A stretch of 64,000 bases of DNA. Origin: Neckera pumila (Eukaryota > Streptophyta > Bryopsida > Hypnales > Neckeraceae). The notes under the pieces were generated by a model. It did no database searches, was not told the origin of the DNA, and was given only the letters and a program-made list of their open reading frames with translations. Location of the stretch: NCBI GenBank assembly GCA_963969595.1, contig OZ018416.1:3922065-3986064 (forward strand). Reading direction: 5' to 3'. Below are positions 21,921 through 57,965 of this stretch, piece after piece (positions within the stretch are counted from its first letter, which is position 1; each line of letters begins with the position of its first letter). The position numbers were made by a program, and so were the translations under genes.

Positions 21921-23788
21921 TCAAGGCTTCAGGGCCAACGCCAAACCAATCTTCGCTGTCTTATCCAAAGACTTGGTGTCCACTTCCCCGGAGAAGGTAA
22001 TCAGAGACTTGGGCCTCCACTCATGCTGAAGAAGCGATGCCAACTTTCCATGGTTGTTCAACCGTGCCTTCACTGTAGTCAAAGCGTCCAACTCGTAAAG
22101 GCCTCCAACGGTGAAAGTGTTCTCATTCTTCGAAAACCTGTGTGCAATCTCAGCAGCCACAGTTGTCCTGGATACTGGGCTCACAGTGTGCAGGTATGAA
22201 GCCTTCAGAAGGTCACCTTTCTCAGCCCTGCATTGTCCAAGAGCAACAGTCGTCACGGGAAGAGTTGGGACGCAAAATATGCCATGCCACAGAGGGCGAA
22301 ATATATAAAACCAAAGGTTAAACATGCTACAAATGATCATGAAGTAAGATAGCGTACAAGATCAAGGAGGCATTGAAGTCGGGCTTCACGAATCCAAGAC
22401 CAGCGTTGTATTTAATAAGAGATCCCGATGCAGTGTCAAAAGCAAGCTCGCCACCAACAGAAAATCCCTCGCTTCCGAGAGCTCCAGTAGCCTCCACAAT
22501 AGGTGTGGGCGTCAAACCGATACTGCCACTAATTCCACAGAAGTCTTGCTTGTACAAAAGCTCAAGCTGCACACACATCATACAAAGGTTACAGCCGCAC
22601 TCTTACACAGCTGTTCTAAGCCCTCAAAGAGAAACTTAATTCCAGTGATCACTGTCAGCAAACACTAGTTTTGAATTACCTTGCCAGACTTGTGATCGGG
22701 AATCGTGAAGGTAAACACACTCTTGGCTCCGGGTGCAAATTCGTCGACGGTGACGGTAGCAAAAATCTGTAAAAATCGTTGAAGAGAACGTTAGTGACCG
22801 GTACTTCCAGAACAGAGATCAATATCATTAGCCTCCATAGAAGAGTATAAGAAGGTGGTTCCTGTCAAGTCGAGTGATTTGAGACTTACGTTTGACTTGG
22901 TGTCAACTTTCACATCAGCCGTGATGTTCTTGTTTACGAAAGATGTATTGACATCACCAGAGAATCCCTCCCCTCTCTTCACACCAGTGGAGGTGAAAGC
23001 CTGCAAAGGTGATTGAATAATTTCTCAGTAACGAAAAATTCATGAAAATCGGAAATAAATGCGGATGAGCAAGAAATATGAAGGTCGTCCTTACTTTCGA
23101 AGCACCTCCTGAGAAACTTGAAGGCCATTTACAACGGAGATACCAATTACAAACGATATGGACCAAATGATGCCCTCAACTAGCAGTGTGACCAAAAATG
23201 GCTTACCAATCCAGACTGAGTGTTTGTGGTGATCACAAATTTCTGGTCATAGGTGTAGTCCTTGTTAAGAAGATCTGTACAGAAAATAAGATAATAAGAA
23301 AATCGAAGGATCGAAATTCAAACCCCATACAATTATCAGCATGTAAAACCTGACTAAAAAGGGTACTCGGTAATCAAAGAGACACCTAATATATAATAAA
23401 ACGGAACAGGAGACAGCTAAATGGAAGGGCGTAACTACCCGGTTTGAAACATTAGAGGAGATAAACTGATCAGAACGGCTGAAACGCTCATTCCTGACAA
23501 TATGATATGAACATAATTAAATCTACAAGGAATCCTGAATAAATGACTACAGAATTTTCTTTCGATGCCACCGATGCTATATAAAACAGAACCACCTAAT
23601 AAAAGTTGATAATCACTAGAGAGGCAAGATGTGATGTACAAGTAATTTGAGGACGACGTAAACAAGAAGCAAGAGGAAGCAATAAGAGGAGTAGGCAAAC
23701 AAGGTTGAACAAAAATGAGAGAATCCTAGCATATCACACCTTTGGTCTTCTTGCCAATGTCGGAGTACATTCCTGGTCCCTTGCCCAT
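21921..23788 (-). CDS. Mitochondrial outer-membrane porin VDAC
   Basis: VDAC forms the voltage-gated beta-barrel channel that passes ATP, ADP and other metabolites across the outer mitochondrial membrane. Six exons on the minus strand: 23788-23740, 23274-23207, 23000-22890, 22766-22680, 22566-22358, 22227-21921. They total 831 nt, giving 276 aa plus stop, the usual plant VDAC length, with all phases and GT-AG sites consistent. Landmarks: N-terminus MGKGPGMYSDIGKKTKDLL, then DYTYDQKFVITTNT, GDVNTSFVNKNITADVKVDT, VDEFAPGAKSVFTFTIPDHK, the strand-rich SIGLTPTPIVEATG region, LIKYNAGLGF, and the C-terminal porin signature region ending LQHEWRPKSLITFSGEVDTK and LGLALALKP-like IGLALALKP. The start lies in a favourable context (CACCATGG). 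It is divergent from IFT54, about 2.2 kb away. Identification is secure. Confidence 0.96.
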
Positions 23789-33904: not shown

Positions 33905-34243
33905 TTATGAAACCTGAAGCATGGGCCTTTTCCCCAGCCGCTTTATCTCACGATCCATCCGCCCAGTCAGCATCAAGATGAACATCTTATAGTCGCAAAT
34001 GAAGGACCAGATTGGATGGCCGAAAGAGGCCGGCGTGTTTCCTTCGATGAAGAAGTGGCTGTACCAGGCAAGCCCGTACCCAAAGAGAGGAGCACAAAAC
34101 AACAGCCACCATTTGATCGCAATCGCGGCTATAAAAAACAGGGTTGCGCATCCGGTTGCACAGAAATGCCATCTCCGTGTTGACGCTTTTGAGTGTTGGT
34201 TGACATAGAACGGCCAAAACTCTTCAAAATTCCTGAAATGCAT
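33905..34243 (-). CDS. Mpo1-like / DUF962 membrane protein
   Basis: A single coding exon of 112 aa runs from an ATG at 34243 to the stop at 33905. The frame is open three codons further, but those begin GTG-GTC-AAC, so MHFRNFEEFW is the natural start. It has the small bacterial/plant DUF962 pattern: EEFWPFYVNQHSKASTRRWHF at residues ~6-26, two hydrophobic segments (ATLFFIAAIAIKWWLLF and an adjoining APLFGYGLAWYSHF), then FIEGNTPASFGHPIWSF, DYKMFILMLTGRMDREI and a short basic tail. The conserved His residues in NQHS, RRWHF, YSHF and FGHP fit the metal-binding set of Mpo1, the ER dioxygenase that alpha-oxidises 2-hydroxy fatty acids in yeast. Activity in this short form is inferred, not shown. 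Upstream sequence to ~36.2 kb is probably leader with an intron. Family identification is strong. Confidence 0.9.
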   Translation of the reverse strand: MHFRNFEEFWPFYVNQHSKASTRRWHFCATGCATLFFIAAIAIKWWLLFCAPLFGYGLAWYSHFFIEGNTPASFGHPIWSFICDYKMFILMLTGRMDREIKRLGKRPMLQVS

Positions 34244-36364
34244 GTTGACCACACGATAACTGCTCTCCTACGCCCCTGCTTACAGATTCACAAGAGTGAG
34301 CAGAGTCAGTTTCTCAAACCTAGTAAAGAGAAGAAAATATTTAGTACTATGAATTTGGATGAGAAATCATGAACCCTCTAATCACCGATCAGTTCAGGTC
34401 TACAACACAATTTCTGTCACTCTTCCAAATACTGATTGCGCCAACTACCTCATAAGGTAGCGGATACTAAAACCGTAAGGGGACCTGATCCCATCTCCTA
34501 ATCACTGGCCCCCGTTATTACCAGCAATTCAGCTCTTTTACTACACCAGATTGGCTTCCAATTCGCAAGTAGGGTGGAAAATGGCCACAGATCGCCACTG
34601 ATTTTTGAGTGGAAATGGGGTTGTCCGTTGTCACTTGTATTGGTCAACCTGGTGTATTTGAAATTACACAAGAAATTCCTACATAGTGATACAAATTTGA
34701 TCTCAACAGACTTGGTTCTTGTACCCAAAGTGACCTCTCCACAGATCGACACTGATATCCAATGAAAGCACACTCCTACATATTAGTTAAAATACTCAAA
34801 TTGTAAATCGTATCCTATACCTTGCTCAAAGAATCGGAGAATTTATAGAGAAGCGTCAAGGATCACAATTCAATAGGAGACGGGGAACGTATTCAAGCAG
34901 GGCCCAAAAACTCGTAGAGTATAAGCCAATGATTAGTTCTGCCGGCGGCTTATTGCTCTCCGGTCAAACCTATTATTGCAAGGCCACGATTTTCTTACAG
35001 AGAGTCGGACCAGTTTTATCAAAATTCTAGAGCCGCTGTGAGCAAATTAGCAGAAAAACATCAGCGAACGAAACAACGACTTACCGGACTTACAAATCTC
35101 TTCTGTAAATGCTGAGAAACAAATTGCATCACACGGCATGCGCAGAGGAACGCACAGAACAAAGCTCTGATTGTGAAATTTCCGCAACACAGATCACCTC
35201 CCAGGGCAACACCCTCGAAATATCAAAACCAGGCCTCAATAAACGCCAACTGCAGCAAGCACGACGACGCTCAGAACTTGCAGTCCAGAATTAGCGCCAT
35301 AACCCTTAAAGGACAAAAATTCTGAATGACCATATTGTGAATATAATAGAAATCAGATAGAGTCACATGTCATTTCCCCAGAATCAGCGAAGATTATTGC
35401 ACATGCTGGTCAAAAAAGAATTAAACTGAACAAAAGAAAGCTATACCCTACCCAAAACTGCTAAGAAAAAAAAGAGGCCCAACTTCCGGTCTTTTAAGGA
35501 TAACAACATGAACTGATTCGAGTTGAAATCAAAGGGAAGCAACTCACACCACAAAAACCGCAAAGTCAACGAGGCAAAAAAACCAGAAAAATCCAAAAAT
35601 TGAAAACCAGAGCACCCTAATCTCAACCATTAGGATTTACCGTAATCCATAATTCGCAGCGGAACACTTCTCCACACCACCACAAGCTGCGACCCAAAAT
35701 CAAAGCATTCGGCATGGAACTCTTTTATGGACATCAAATTCATAACCCTAATTCGCGTCGTAATTGTCGTTGCAACCATTAGGGCTTAGTTCCCCCAGAC
35801 GGACATGCAGACCAATTCAAGCATACAACGCGCATGATCTCAAACAATAACATTAAGCCCTCTGCCACAATCTTACAGCAAACTAATTCCATTCAATCCC
35901 GCAACTGAACAGAGCACGCAACCAAGCAAAGATATCGCACCATGAAAAACGCCCATCGTCAAGCCTTGCAAGAATACCTTCAACTATACTCCACGCAAAG
36001 CAAATCCAGCCCTCTAAAAAATAGATTTGCTCAAACTCATCACCAACGCCGCTTCTTTTCCATTAGATTCTCCTCCAAACAAAACCAACAACTGTAGCAC
36101 CGACAAGCACAAACAAGTCGACGCGAATTCTAAAGGCGGAGATGACGAGACGAGGATAAGAATTTGCAAATAATTGGTGAGGTTGGAAGAAGACTGAAGA
36201 AGAAGACGGCGTTGTCGGAGTGTTATTGAAGGGAATGATGAAACTCTATCAATTGTTGGAGGCTGGAGAGAGACTTAAGGGAAATCACCAAATGTATTTA
36301 TTTTCTATTTGTGGAAGTAGTATGTATGTTTTAAGTTTTGAATCAAATACTATTAGTGCCTTGT
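34244..36364. other. Leader/promoter region of the Mpo1-like gene and unassigned DNA
   Basis: No further coding exon was recognised on either strand. Composition is more balanced than elsewhere to ~36.2 kb, then turns AT-rich. A purine-rich stretch on the plus strand at 36.13-36.26 kb could be the first-exon area of the minus-strand transcript. Short frames (for example plus 34574-34765) look incidental. Confidence 0.35.
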
Positions 36365-51468: not shown

Positions 51469-54400
51469 ATGGAGTCTAAACTTGCACATTCAAAAGATTC
51501 TAATGCTAGACATTCAAATCATGAAAATGATATTTATCAAGATTACGATAACAACATTGTATATAATGAAATTCAAGATTTTGATTTTGTGCAAGAAATA
51601 GCTTCAAATTACCACAATACATCTAATATTTTTGAAAGACAGGTTTATATATATTAAATATGATTAAATACTTCAATATTTAATTATATTATTAATATTG
51701 TTAATTAAAATATATATAATGATTTGAATCAAATAATTGAATTTTAGCAATTTTTAAATTGAAAAGTTTCTAAAAATGAGAGATTAAATGATAAATAGTG
51801 ATGAATGGTCTACATTTGTTTTTTTCATGTCTGAATAATAACAATTATATAAATAATTTATATGGATTTTTGTAATTTGAATAATAGTTTAGAATAATAT
51901 ATTATTGTTAATATATGTAAAAAATTATGTAGTGCAATATAATTATATTTTATTATTTATTATAATTTATAATTTATATTTGAATTGTAATTTATATCAC
52001 ATACAAATTATTAAAAAATTATAATAATTTGTTTTAATTTATCTTTAAATCTTATTTTTAAATAAATAAATAGTAATTTAACTGAATATTGATCAATATT
52101 AATGAGCAACAAAATTAGTAAGAATCGTATAAGATTTTTGTAGCACTTCATAATTTAGTATTTTAATTAGCAGTATGTATTGAATGCAATGTTTTCAACA
52201 AAACAATAATTTTTTATCAATGGCAATTATGTGCAAAAAAAGTTTGTAAATTTTTTTTTCATATTTTTATATATTATAATTTTTTTAGTATATTTTAATT
52301 TTTCAAATGCAAGTCTCATATAAAAATCAAATCAAGAGGTCTAAATTTTAAATATGATTGTTGGTGATGCAAAATATGATATATTTAAAAATACATTTAA
52401 AATAATAGGAATTAGTAGATTGCATCTAATTTGTCAATCTATTTTATGTTAGTTAATATTAGAGAATCAAAACATTTACAATCAAAATACAGAAAATCAT
52501 TTTGAAATACCTTCATTGTCTACTTCTCTACTGCCTATGGAACAAGCTATGCAAGCACTTAGTCATGTAAGTGAGGACCATGTAGACACAAGCATGCATT
52601 GTATCAAAGATCATTCACATATTGCTGAAAATATGGATCTTGATCAATTTTATCAAATAAATTTGGAATCATTATTAATTGAAATGACAAAATATGATTT
52701 AGAAGATTCAACAAAGTCACTAGAAGATTTGAACCTCATAGATAACACAAAAATAGATATTTCTTTTCAAGAGATTACACACCATACTCCTTCAAGACCA
52801 TACTCTCAACAAAAATTAAAAAGAACGATTCACACCCAAAATGCCTTATATATTACTAATAGCTTAAATAAATCCCTCTTTAATGAAGGCCCCGCAACCA
52901 AAAGAATAAGAACTCCTCGTTCTAGTTCTCCAAATTCAACTTCCCATCGATCACTTGCAAATACTCGTGCATCGTCACCTCTAAAGACTCATGAGCAATT
53001 ACCTCCAAAAACTCCTATGTCATCACCTCTAATCATGCCATCACTTCTAGATACTTATGCACCATTAATTTTACCAATTCCATATGAATTTCAGTTTAAC
53101 AATATCAATGAATCTGCCATGCAAAGCAATGCATTTTCATTTATCTCTGCTAATAATCTGAATGAAGATGTAATAAATACAAATGATACTCAAAATGATA
53201 TTACTCCAAGTTCAGACATTGACATTACAGATTTACCCCTTGATACACCCATATTAGATGATTATAATATTGGTGATAATATAAACATTCAAGATGCAAT
53301 CTTGCAATTTGACATTCCCAATGACTTTTCTAGTGACCAAAATACTGACTATGTAGATATGCCTAATTATGTTATAACAAATGATATATCTTTAAAGTTT
53401 GAAGTTCCAAAAGAACTTCCTAGTATTGAAAACTTTGACCTACTAGATATATCCAATATAGTTGATTGCAATGCTAGAAATCTAGACAACCAATGTAGCA
53501 ATGCCTTCCATACAATTGTTCCTCTATTGCATATAGAACAAATTGCACAATTAGCAAACAATGAAAGTATGATTCATATAAATGATAAAAATAGCCTTGA
53601 AAAGAACCCAGAAAAAGATCCAAATGATATGGCTATGAAGGCTATTGATGACAAAAACACAAATTTTAAAGCATGTTCACAGGGATCTAATGAGGCGTCT
53701 ATTTTATCTGATGCTCAAGATGTTAATGTGAAAAGTGTTTATGTACTTAGTAAGGACAAAACCTCTTTAGTGTCTACTGACTTGACAAGCCATGATACAG
53801 AAGAGTCGTTAGGAAAAATGAGAGAAAAAACTAATGAACTTCAAGAAGAATCCTTTGTTGAAATGATGAACAATGCTATTGACAAACCTAATGAAGAAGC
53901 TAATGAACTTTGCTGCCAAGAATCATTTGTTGAAATGATGGAAGATGATTTTCAAGAACCTATTGAAGAACTTAATGAAGAACTTAGTGAACTTTGTTGC
54001 CAAGAATCCTTTGCTGACATGATAGAAAATGATTTTCAAGAACCAATTGAAGAACTTAATGAAGAAACTAATGAACTTTGTTGCCAAGAATCCTTTATTG
54101 AAATGATGAAAGATGATTTTCAAGAACCTATTGAAGAACTTAATGAAGAAACCACTGAATTATGTTGCCAAAAATCCTCTATTGAAATGATGAAAGATGA
54201 TTTTCAAGAACCTACTGAAGAACTTAATGAAATCCAAAGAGAACCTCTTTTTAGGTCAGTGCATTGCAATCCTGAAAAAATTAAACAAAAACAAGTAAGA
54301 AAGAATTATGTACCAGATGGATTAAGTGGTATTTATAAGGTTAAGGGCGGTTGGAAAGCAACACTACCTAAGTTAGATGTTAATAATGAAAATTGGACAA

Positions 54401-56412
54401 TTGGACTTTATGCCACTTGTGAGATAGCTGCTAGGGTGCAAGATTTATTAGCTCTTAAATTAGAAATGCATCTTAAGATTAAAAATTATCTTTTTAATTT
54501 TTCTTTATCTGATTATAAGGATGACTTTGAGGATATGCAAAAATGGAGCAATGATGATTATGTATGGTCAATGAAGAGACAAGCTTTAGGATTTACACAT
54601 TCTGAATCTGATTTGAAATGTGTTCAACGTAGTAGGCAAAAAAATCCTTTGGGAGGTGAAATGTGGCTAGGAAGAATTAATAACTATGTAGGAAATAAAA
54701 AAATAAAAGGATTTGAGAAGTTTATTGATATTGACCATAGTCCTGAGAAAGAAGTAATTGGAATCTTCACAGACCTTGTTAATTTACATGTAAATGGATG
54801 GGAATATGTGACTAATTTTCGTCGTGGACATTATACTGTAGATGATGTTCAAAAATTTATCTTTCTTCTTGAAGAAAAAAAAGTAAGTGAAGCATATGCA
54901 TGGGATCTAATAACACAAGTGTTAAATGAACCTCTTCCTTGCAATATTCACAAGCGAAGTTCTCAAAAAATTATCAAACCTAGCTCTATCAATGATAAAA
55001 ATGCGTGCGTGGCAAAAAAGAATTTGAATCCAAAAGACATGGCAAAACATTTTATAGAATGTCCTTTGATTCAACTTGATGAATCATGGGCATTGTACAA
55101 AAAACCTAGTAATAATTGTGATTTGGAATTTGAAGATACAATTGTTCGTATGTATAAGGCTTCAAATTGGTCACCATCTAATATAAAATTACATAGTGTA
55201 GAACGTAAAAAATACAAATTTTATTTTCCTTGTGTCATTGCAACAAATTTTGCTAAAATTAACATACAAAGACGAATTTTGGGCTTGAATTACCATCAAT
55301 ACTTAATTAATACACCTGATACTTGTATTGTAGAATGCTATCAAAAACAATGGGTAAATCTTCCCAACATTAGATATTTAGAGTTAGACTTCTATAATGT
55401 AATTGCTTCTGATGGTGGACTTATTGTTGTGAAAAGAGAAAGGAATGAACAAAATTTGATTGATCAAGACAAAAATACATCAACAATAATAGTAACAAAT
55501 CCTCTTACGTATGACATAAAATTTTTACCTCCAATACCATATAAAATATTACAACAAAAGATAGCTCATTTAGTTTTTTACGATAGTACAAGAACAACAT
55601 ATCGCTTGATTGTTATAGGAGTATCCCATTGTGAAGAAACAGTATGTGATGATGATGTTCAAATTTTTGGAAGTACACAAATTTCATTGGTAGTATATTG
55701 CTCTATAAAAGAATCGTGGGTTCATTTTGATCATATTTTAAATGCAGCTCCACCATTTAAAGAATTAGGATATTCTAATATTGTTGTTTGTGGATGCTCT
55801 ATTTACTATGGTGGCCTACAAATCCAATCTCCACAAATACCTCCCAAAAAAGAATGCCTTCCAAAACCTGTCATATTCTATTTTAATATAAATAATTCTA
55901 GAAGGCAACAATTAATTATTGATTTTACTAAGGCTGGAGACATATTTTTTATTAAGGTTGTTGAACCACCAAAGCTTGTTCAAATTGGATTTAACACTAA
56001 AATATATGCTGTATCTCGACAAGCCCAATTTAAAAAAAATCCAGATCTTTTATTTATTATTGAAGTTGTTGTTAATAAAGATGGTACCCCCACAGGTTCT
56101 TACAAAGTCTTAACTCAAGGTATTATGCCTAAAGACATATATACATTATTATTTAAAAAGACCAATAAAAGAGGAGAGAAATTAAAGGTGTCTCATGATG
56201 AAAAATTGCCTCCATGGGAAGTAATGGCAAGTATTGAACATATAGCGATAAAAGTTATTGGACATGATCCACTCATTGCTTTATACAATGTTAAAGATCA
56301 AAAATGGAATTATACTTATTTTCCATATACGGAGTCTATTAAACTTTCTAATACTAAAACATGGAGACTAATCCCAGGGGTTTATGAACCAAGATGGAAT
56401 GCAACACCTTAA
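51469..56412 (+). CDS. Large AP2-AP2-like / kelch-propeller-like fusion protein
   Basis: Two exons are inferred: 51469-51642 (ATG at 51469; donor CAG|GTTTAT) and 52453-56412 (acceptor TATGTTAG), in phase, ~1,377 aa. The downstream exon is open upstream of its first ATG (52537), and the added residues match its Asn/acidic style, supporting the join. Residues 1-650 are acidic, Asn/Ser-rich and disordered, with a basic, possible nuclear signal (ATKRIRTPR, ~206-214), an SP/TP-rich stretch (~213-250) and 28-aa repeats (~544-651). Residues ~682-741 resemble an AP2 domain (IYKVKGGWKATL, then IGLYATCEIAARVQDLLALK and NYLFNF). A linker follows (SDYKDDFEDMQKW, DDYVWSMKRQALGF). A second AP2-like repeat (~778-847) has MWLGRINNYVGNKK and EYVTNF. 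Order and linker match AINTEGUMENTA-type AP2 proteins, but DNA-contact residues (YRGVR) are mostly lost. Residues ~934-1377 resemble plant F-box/kelch C-termini (IASDGGLIVVKRE, NPLTYDIKFLPPIP, and the ending YEPRWNATP). No F-box is seen. Codon use is very AT-rich. Confidence 0.8.
53839..54235 (+). repeat. In-frame 84-bp tandem repeats (28-residue units)
   Basis: Four good copies and a degenerate leading one lie in phase inside the large gene. The consensus contains LCCQESF(V/I)EMM, then DDFQEP(I/T)EELNEE. Each unit combines a CC pair with a strongly acidic helix-like segment. Nucleotide similarity between copies is high, so expansion was fairly recent. Antisense frames over this block are artefacts. 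Confidence 0.95.
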
Positions 56413-57799
56413 TGGCCCTAAAGGCTCCGTCAACCACATTGTGGATGACGTATAGAATGGACTCGTAGTCATCTACAAACTATGACCAATTTTACTCCAT
56501 CCAATTTTTTGATGCAACGTATATGAGTTTTGTTTTTCATGCCACAAAATTGGATGCCACTTATGCATACGTGTATTGGTTTATTAGAAAGCTGGAAATA
56601 CACAAGAATTTGTAGAAATGCCTCTAGATATTTTATAGAATAAATAAAGATTAAATTACAAACCAATTGTTGACCTTCTTATGATAAACAAAGACATGTG
56701 GTTATACATTTTGATTACTTGCATCTATTAATCAAAAAGATAATGTGGATTTTTTTGTTTGTTTCACAATATTTCTATTTTTATTTAGACTATACTATAC
56801 TTTGAGCATTGCAAAGTAAAAAAGGAAGAAAATTTCAATAGTACAAATTCAACAATGGTTTTGTGCTAAATTTGGACTAAAGCTAATACAAATTGCAATT
56901 ATGCTAGTGCATGAGCTTAGATGCATGAGCCTAGTACGGGCCTTGAATCTAGTTGTAGGTATATACCTGCAACCATTTGAAGGTGCTTATAACATTTGTA
57001 CTTGTAATATAGGTACACTATAACATGGAAAGAGTATATTACATAAGTATCTATAACCATTAATAGTGTCTATAACATAAAATTCTAGGCACATGGGCTC
57101 ATAGATTCTATACTCACAGGCTAGCACTCTTTATACAAATATTGTCGAATCTAATATAGAATATGTACAAAACCATTTCAACTTGTGGTAGATTTATACT
57201 AGTGATTGTGTATGACAAAGATCCTATCTGGTAGTGAGAGGCTTGGAGTAAATTTATATAATTTCAGTTTCTTAAACCCTATATGTCCTTCCTCACTTAT
57301 AAAAAGTGAAGGCACCGACATTTTTATAGATGTTGTCACTTTAGCATTGCAATTTTGTGCTTGGTCACCTCAAATGAGTTTAATAAATTAGAGATTCTTA
57401 TTTGTTTATATATTGTAATGATGGTCATTTAATAATTTTGAAATACTACACCAAAGTTTCTTCTATTATATACATGTGTACTCTATATTTCATACACAAT
57501 GACCAAATGTGAAAACCTACATTCTAAAAATGTTCACTATAAGAGAAAGGGGTGTATTAAGTGCGATTTTAAGCCAAAGTGCATATTAAAAGGTCTTGTG
57601 TTTTTAGTAAAAAATTGCTGAAAATGTTGTGTTTAGGAATTACCTTAAAATACCTTTTTTGAATTTCTAAATGTCTTTTCAGCATGTATTTATAGCATTC
57701 TTAAAAGACAATATTAACTACAGGGTTTAAATCTTCTCCAAAAGATGTAAAAATTTGTACATTTCAAAATGCCAAATCAATAAGGCATTTTATTTCTAT
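56413..57799. other. 3' flank of the fusion gene and AT-rich DNA
   Basis: No coding exon was seen. AATAAATAAAG-type sequences near 56640 could serve for polyadenylation of the upstream gene. At 57536 CACTATAAGAGAAAGG resembles a CACTA-MITE left end, but no partner was found. Confidence 0.35.
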
Positions 57800-57965
57800 A
57801 AAGAAGTCCAAATTTATGAAAGAATCTAAATCTATAAAACAATCCAAATCTATGAAATAGTCCAAATTTATGAAATAGTCCAAGTCCATGAAAAAATTAT
57901 AAATCTATGAAATAGTCCAAATCTATGAAAAAATCTAAATGTATGGAAAAATTCCAAATCTATGG
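57800..57965. repeat. Degenerate ~19-20-bp tandem repeat
   Basis: About eight variants of a CCAAATCTATGAAATAGT-like unit occur in a row, with A/T changes and small length differences. Typical of AT-rich minisatellites. Confidence 0.85.

What the first reader, a model, noticed from the sequence alone, without database searches (positions are those of the whole stretch)
51469..56412. AP2-AP2-linker module fused to a kelch/F-box-type propeller region in one giant protein
Seen: residues ~682-847 reproduce, in order, two AP2-like repeats joined by a linker whose spacing and residues (Y..D..DM....DYV...RQ..GF) match AINTEGUMENTA-type proteins. Residues ~934-1377 have the repeated SDGGL / NPLT...LPPIP / W features and the EPR.(N/D)A ending of plant F-box/kelch proteins. 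Known: AP2 domains bind DNA, and kelch propellers are substrate-binding parts of SCF ligases. I know of no family combining them. Inference: a DNA-derived scaffold that gained, or became, a protein-binding module. Loss of YRGVR-type contacts suggests the AP2 folds no longer bind DNA canonically.
Basis: partly seen in the sequence, partly recalled or inferred. Interest (0 to 1): 0.88.

Follow-up and report, generated by a model that had tools for sequence, protein, structure and literature searches.

The report
Double AP2 domain fused to propeller
This plant gene appears to encode one long protein that joins a pair of worn AP2 DNA-binding-type domains to a kelch-like propeller, a combination that several related proteins share, so it looks like an undescribed family of regulators rather than an accident of one genome.

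Summary
One open frame (52516-56412 +, 1298 codons) carries an AP2-linker-AP2 module of the AINTEGUMENTA/WRI1 type (54328-54819) and a kelch-like beta-propeller (about 55225-56409). The AP2 part is found by sequence (WRI1 structure 7wq5, E 3.4e-6 alone; 4.1e-23 as profile) and by fold. The propeller rests mainly on fold. Of 13 homologues found, four carry both modules in full and two more carry parts that span the junction; five full-length ones, one of them named Sphagnum troendelagicum, share the propeller and an N-terminal motif but lack AP2. Two separate genes are therefore unlikely. Best reading: a nuclear regulator in which a weakened tandem AP2 tethers a partner-binding propeller and an acidic repeat region. 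Nine prior-art paper searches (listings only) showed no such protein. Mechanism is inferred; the organism is not identified.

The parts
51469..51642 (+). possible first coding exon (58 codons, GT donor at 51643)
   Evidence: frame-keeping splice found by script; inferred only, no transcript
52453..56412 (+). long exon; open frame to stop at 56412 (ORF 52516-56412 from first listed start, 1298 aa)
52888..52944 (+). N-terminal motif GPATKRIRTPRSSSPNSTS: nuclear-signal-like basic patch followed by S/T-P sites
   Evidence: present in 11 of 14 family members; the other three (P0010-P0012) are sequences that begin downstream; T133, P134, P139, S141 invariant in the ten-sequence alignment
53876..54231 (+). 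4.2 copies of an 84-nt (28-aa) in-frame tandem repeat, acidic with F, M, L (ESFVEMMEDDFQEPIEELNEE)
54328..54477 (+). AP2-like repeat 1 (three strands, helix)
   Evidence: WRI1 match, model
54478..54606 (+). linker of the AINTEGUMENTA/WRI1 type (DY....EDMQKW..DDYVWSMKRQ..GF), two predicted helices
54607..54819 (+). AP2-like repeat 2, ending in TNF
   Evidence: TEM1 match 0.0017
54820..54933 (+). family-specific helical extension (RRGHY..DD..F..L......WDLI...L.EP), kept in P0001-P0004, P0011, P0013
   Evidence: alignments; helices in model
55021..55224 (+). conserved pre-propeller segment, helical in the model at low confidence; no F-box match
55225..56409 (+). kelch-like beta-propeller with SDGGL, NPLT...LPPIP and EPRWNATP features
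   Evidence: KIB1-4 propeller hit in homologue P0003 only, below cut-off

Best explanation
The gene encodes one nuclear regulatory protein. A disordered N-terminal half carries a nuclear-signal-like basic patch with S/T-P sites and an acidic, F/M/L-containing tandem repeat that could act as an activation or cofactor-binding region. A tandem AP2 module of AINTEGUMENTA/WRI1 descent follows; its first repeat has lost the usual arginines while the second keeps basic residues, so it most likely binds DNA weakly or with changed preference, or helps hold the protein on chromatin. The C-terminal kelch-like propeller binds a partner protein or ligand. The protein thus brings a propeller-bound partner to DNA or to AP2-regulated genes. 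Shown by calls: one open frame, AP2-linker-AP2 homology, propeller fold, conservation of the combination. Inferred: nuclear location, activation by the repeats, residual DNA binding, partner binding, and the overall role.
Against: In the window's own branch AP2-1 is hardly better kept than the disordered part (37% against 35% with P0001; 43% against 32% with P0002; P0001 with P0002 41% against 42%), so its function may be fading there. Five full-length relatives lack AP2 altogether, so the family can work without it. The acidic-window count had no chance control. No expression, localisation or binding data. Pfam does not call AP2 in the window.
Confidence: 0.45

Rival explanations
1. The AP2 pair no longer binds DNA; it is a protein-binding scaffold or decoy that pairs with or competes with ordinary AINTEGUMENTA-type factors, and the propeller supplies the partner specificity.
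For: AP2-1 has lost its arginines; the linker is the best-kept AP2 part in two of the pairs (74% P0001-P0002; 49% window-P0001); relatives without AP2 exist.
Against: AP2-2 keeps basic residues in most members; linker conservation is not higher in P0003-P0004 or P0003-P0013 (84% and 76%, against 93 and 88%, 80 and 80% for the repeats).
Confidence: 0.27
2. It is a substrate receptor of an SCF ubiquitin ligase, in which the propeller, or the AP2 pair, picks the substrate.
For: The propeller resembles kelch domains of ligase receptors by fold, and P0003 weakly matches the KIB1-4 propeller (E 0.0096).
Against: No F-box in the scans; the kelch fold also occurs outside ligases (ESP and thiocyanate-forming protein are in the same lists), and TolB and arabinanase propellers are listed as well.
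Confidence: 0.12
3. Two separate genes, or a chance or assembly-made fusion or pseudogene.
For: No transcript was available; GC3 of the frame (0.19) is at the level of the AT-rich flanks (0.26-0.31), which fits weak codon selection.
Against: One open frame of 1298 codons without a stop; P0001-P0004 carry both modules, with P0011 and P0013 spanning the junction; protein conservation runs through both modules.
Confidence: 0.05

Closest known systems
WRINKLED1/AINTEGUMENTA-type AP2 transcription factors (double AP2 with conserved linker)
   Same: Order AP2-linker-AP2, linker residues and spacing, predicted fold; WRI1 is the best PDB sequence match and the top Foldseek row.
   Different: AP2-1 arginines lost; AP2-2 arginines partly replaced by lysine; extra Trp residues in the linker; helical extension after AP2-2; a C-terminal propeller; Pfam cut-off not reached.
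Plant F-box/kelch and KIB1-4 beta-propeller proteins
   Same: Propeller fold; NP.T...LPP and SDGGL-type features (resemblance recalled); one weak Pfam hit in P0003.
   Different: No F-box detected; fused to AP2; sequence identity to solved propellers about 9-14% in the rows seen.
   Same: Propeller and pre-propeller segment, and, in P0005-P0009, the N-terminal KR.KTP..S.S motif.
   Different: AP2 profile finds nothing in P0005-P0009 up to E 100 (P0010: -1.8 bits); a different acidic repeat region lies in its place.

Membership tests
AP2-type (double AP2) DNA-binding proteins | Two AP2 folds joined by the conserved linker | tested here: met
AP2-type (double AP2) DNA-binding proteins | Pfam AP2 match at the curated cut-off | tested here: not met
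   window: no hit up to E 10; P0003 25.7 and P0004 26.8 bits against a cut-off of 33.3
AP2-type (double AP2) DNA-binding proteins | DNA-contact residues of the YRGVR type kept | tested here: inconclusive
   lost in repeat 1, largely basic (K for R) in repeat 2; contact positions recalled
AP2-type (double AP2) DNA-binding proteins | Sequence-specific DNA binding | not testable with these tools
   needs a binding assay
Kelch-like beta-propeller proteins | Propeller fold of the kelch kind | tested here: met
   non-kelch propellers also appear in the lists, and the number of blades was not settled
Kelch-like beta-propeller proteins | Pfam kelch or KIB1-4 match at cut-off | tested here: not met
   window none; KIB1-4 in one homologue, 15.9 bits against 27.4; Kelch_6 0.053 in one of six pieces
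SCF F-box receptors | F-box domain before the propeller | tested here: not met
   not found; P0010-P0013 were not scanned on their own; a very degenerate F-box cannot be excluded
SCF F-box receptors | Binding to SKP1 and cullin | not testable with these tools
   needs an interaction assay

The most novel reading that the evidence does not exclude
A family of transcriptional regulators of (probably) bryophytes in which an AINTEGUMENTA-derived DNA-binding module and a kelch-type ligand- or partner-binding propeller are fused in one chain, so that a signal sensed by the propeller acts directly at DNA, without the usual separate receptor and factor.
Probability: 0.25. Interest if true: 0.78.

Novelty: new variant of a known kind. 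Interest (0 to 1): 0.62.

Why it matters
AP2 and kelch proteins are two of the large regulatory families of plants (general knowledge). A stable fusion of both in one chain, with a sister branch that has propeller but no AP2, would let one ask directly how a DNA-binding module is gained, worn down and lost in a regulator, and whether a propeller can act as a built-in sensor or effector of a transcription factor.

Tried and rejected
Paralogues or broken copies elsewhere in the window: tblastn found none beyond the gene itself, only matches with E 0.04 or worse outside it. Galaxin repeat, VapB and SMC hits of the N-terminal half are sub-threshold matches to the acidic repeat and were dismissed. 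Ribosomal uS13 matches of the AP2 profile (E 0.31 and 0.8), which lie in the end of AP2-2 and the helical extension, were taken as chance. F-box: looked for, not found. The VIA-align table shows only propeller chains among its 50 rows; WRI1 is not among them, since one domain fills the list, so it tests the AP2 half barely. The tree (13 rows, P0013 dropped) puts the AP2-bearing rows on one side of a branch (100/100), but it has no outgroup, warns of long branches, and cannot say whether AP2 was gained or lost. Organism: not identified; the window's other genes (porin, Mpo1-like) fit a plant nuclear genome. Prior art: nine searches, listings only, no title or abstract start shown described such a protein; only the first 15 of 36 and of 27 papers were listed. 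Passages of one paper (PMC8218904) were seen. The WRI1 structure paper was not held, so its DNA contacts could not be checked.

Full report
What is there. The window contains one open frame of at least 200 aa, 52516-56412 (+), 1298 aa. Shuffles of the frame's own bases give open stretches of at most 156 aa in 200 trials, and a naive estimate puts the chance of 1298 open codons near 1e-50.

AP2 half. The whole ORF finds WRINKLED1 (7wq5) among PDB sequences at E 3.4e-6, the fragment 54343-54915 at 8.7e-8. A profile of the window and P0001-P0004 gives 4.1e-23, with TEM1 at 0.0017 and ERF096 at 0.15. A profile made without the window (P0001-P0004, P0013) scores the window at 119.9 bits, a WRI1 fragment at 87.7 bits, and the best of 600 shuffled proteins at 5.1 bits. 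The second model (14 sequences, mean pLDDT 57, pTM 0.46) shows three strands and a helix, two linker helices, then again three strands and a helix; 7wq5_A is Foldseek's first row (E 1.3e-5, 24% identity, TM 0.53 by target length), tied in E with a designed kelch-like protein. Pfam AP2 does not hit the window and hits P0003 and P0004 below the cut-off; it also hits P0003, P0004 and P0013 in the database's precomputed annotation.

Wear of the AP2 repeats. In the alignment of six AP2-bearing members with WRI1, and in the ERF096 alignment, repeat 1 lacks the arginines of the first strands. In repeat 2 the R of YRG is K in five of six (N in P0002), the R before the conserved W is K or R in four of six, and the R of EAR is K or R in six of six. 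That these positions touch DNA is recalled, not taken from a call. Passages seen in PMC8218904 suggest that changes of three AP2 residues in AtWRI2 may affect its function, so such changes matter, but they do not decide this case.

The family. Thirteen homologues were found in three searches. P0001-P0004 have both modules in full. P0013 (821 aa) has the AP2 part and the start of the propeller half. P0011 aligns with the window from the last residues of AP2-2 (54802) through the propeller, although the AP2 profile gives it only 3.9 bits. P0012 is a propeller piece. P0005-P0009 have the N-terminal motif and propeller and no AP2 (no row up to E 100); P0010 is a propeller piece of that branch. Only P0009 carries an organism name, Sphagnum troendelagicum. 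The tree of propellers sets the five AP2-bearing rows on one side of a branch against the five AP2-less rows (100/100), but has no outgroup and long branches; P0013 was left out. The window's closest rows are P0012, P0011, P0002 and P0001.

N-terminal half. A basic patch followed by S/T-P sites (KR.KTP..S.S) is found in 11 of 14 members; the other three begin downstream. Tandem repeats above all shuffles occur in 7 of 14 members, with different units in different branches; the window's is 28 aa, 4.2 copies by the tandem repeat program, acidic with F, M and L. P0001 and P0002 carry one related motif each. The acidic-window count has no chance control.

How strongly is the AP2 part kept? P0003-P0004: repeats 93 and 88%, linker 84%, disordered part 83%, propeller 90%. 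P0003-P0013: repeats 80 and 80%, linker 76%, disordered part 75%. P0001-P0002: repeats 41 and 57%, linker 74%, disordered part 42%, propeller 61%. Window-P0001: repeats 37 and 39%, linker 49%, disordered part 35%, propeller 51%. So the AP2 part is under some constraint, but repeat 1 in the window's branch is hardly better kept than disordered sequence.

Mechanism. I think a nuclear regulator that uses a weakened tandem AP2 to sit at DNA, an acidic repeat to contact the transcription machinery, and a propeller to bind a partner is most likely (0.45). A non-DNA-binding scaffold is the main rival (0.27), an SCF receptor less likely (0.12), separate genes or artefact unlikely (0.05). Homology, fold and conservation are shown by calls; location, activation, DNA binding and partner binding are inferred.

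Novelty. Each domain is known; the combination is not described in what I could search (nine searches, listings only, open-licence papers only). I rate it a new variant of a known kind. The organism of the window was not identified; a search of its own genome did not complete (nine attempts).

Noticed in passing
window 52516-56409 against 21921-22602 and 33905-34267: GC at third codon positions of the gene is 0.19, like the AT-rich flanks, while the porin and Mpo1-like coding stretches in the window have 0.49-0.61: weak codon selection, low expression or a different history.
   Followed up: partly
window 21921-22602 (-): Mitochondrial porin (VDAC) exons, Porin_3 E 7.3e-27 and 3.5e-15.
   Followed up: no
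window 33905-34267 (-): Mpo1-like dioxygenase, PF06127 E 8e-31.
   Followed up: no
window 57795-57964: 18-bp-based tandem repeat of about nine copies, about 1.4 kb downstream of the gene.
   Followed up: no
window 54820-54933: The helical extension after AP2-2 lies within weak matches of the profile to ribosomal protein uS13 (E 0.31 and 0.8); probably chance, but the segment itself is well kept in the family.
   Followed up: partly
homologues P0005-P0009: In the AP2-less branch a different acidic tandem repeat (24 or 28 aa) lies between the start of the protein and the propeller, so repeat expansion in this region seems to have happened more than once.
   Followed up: partly
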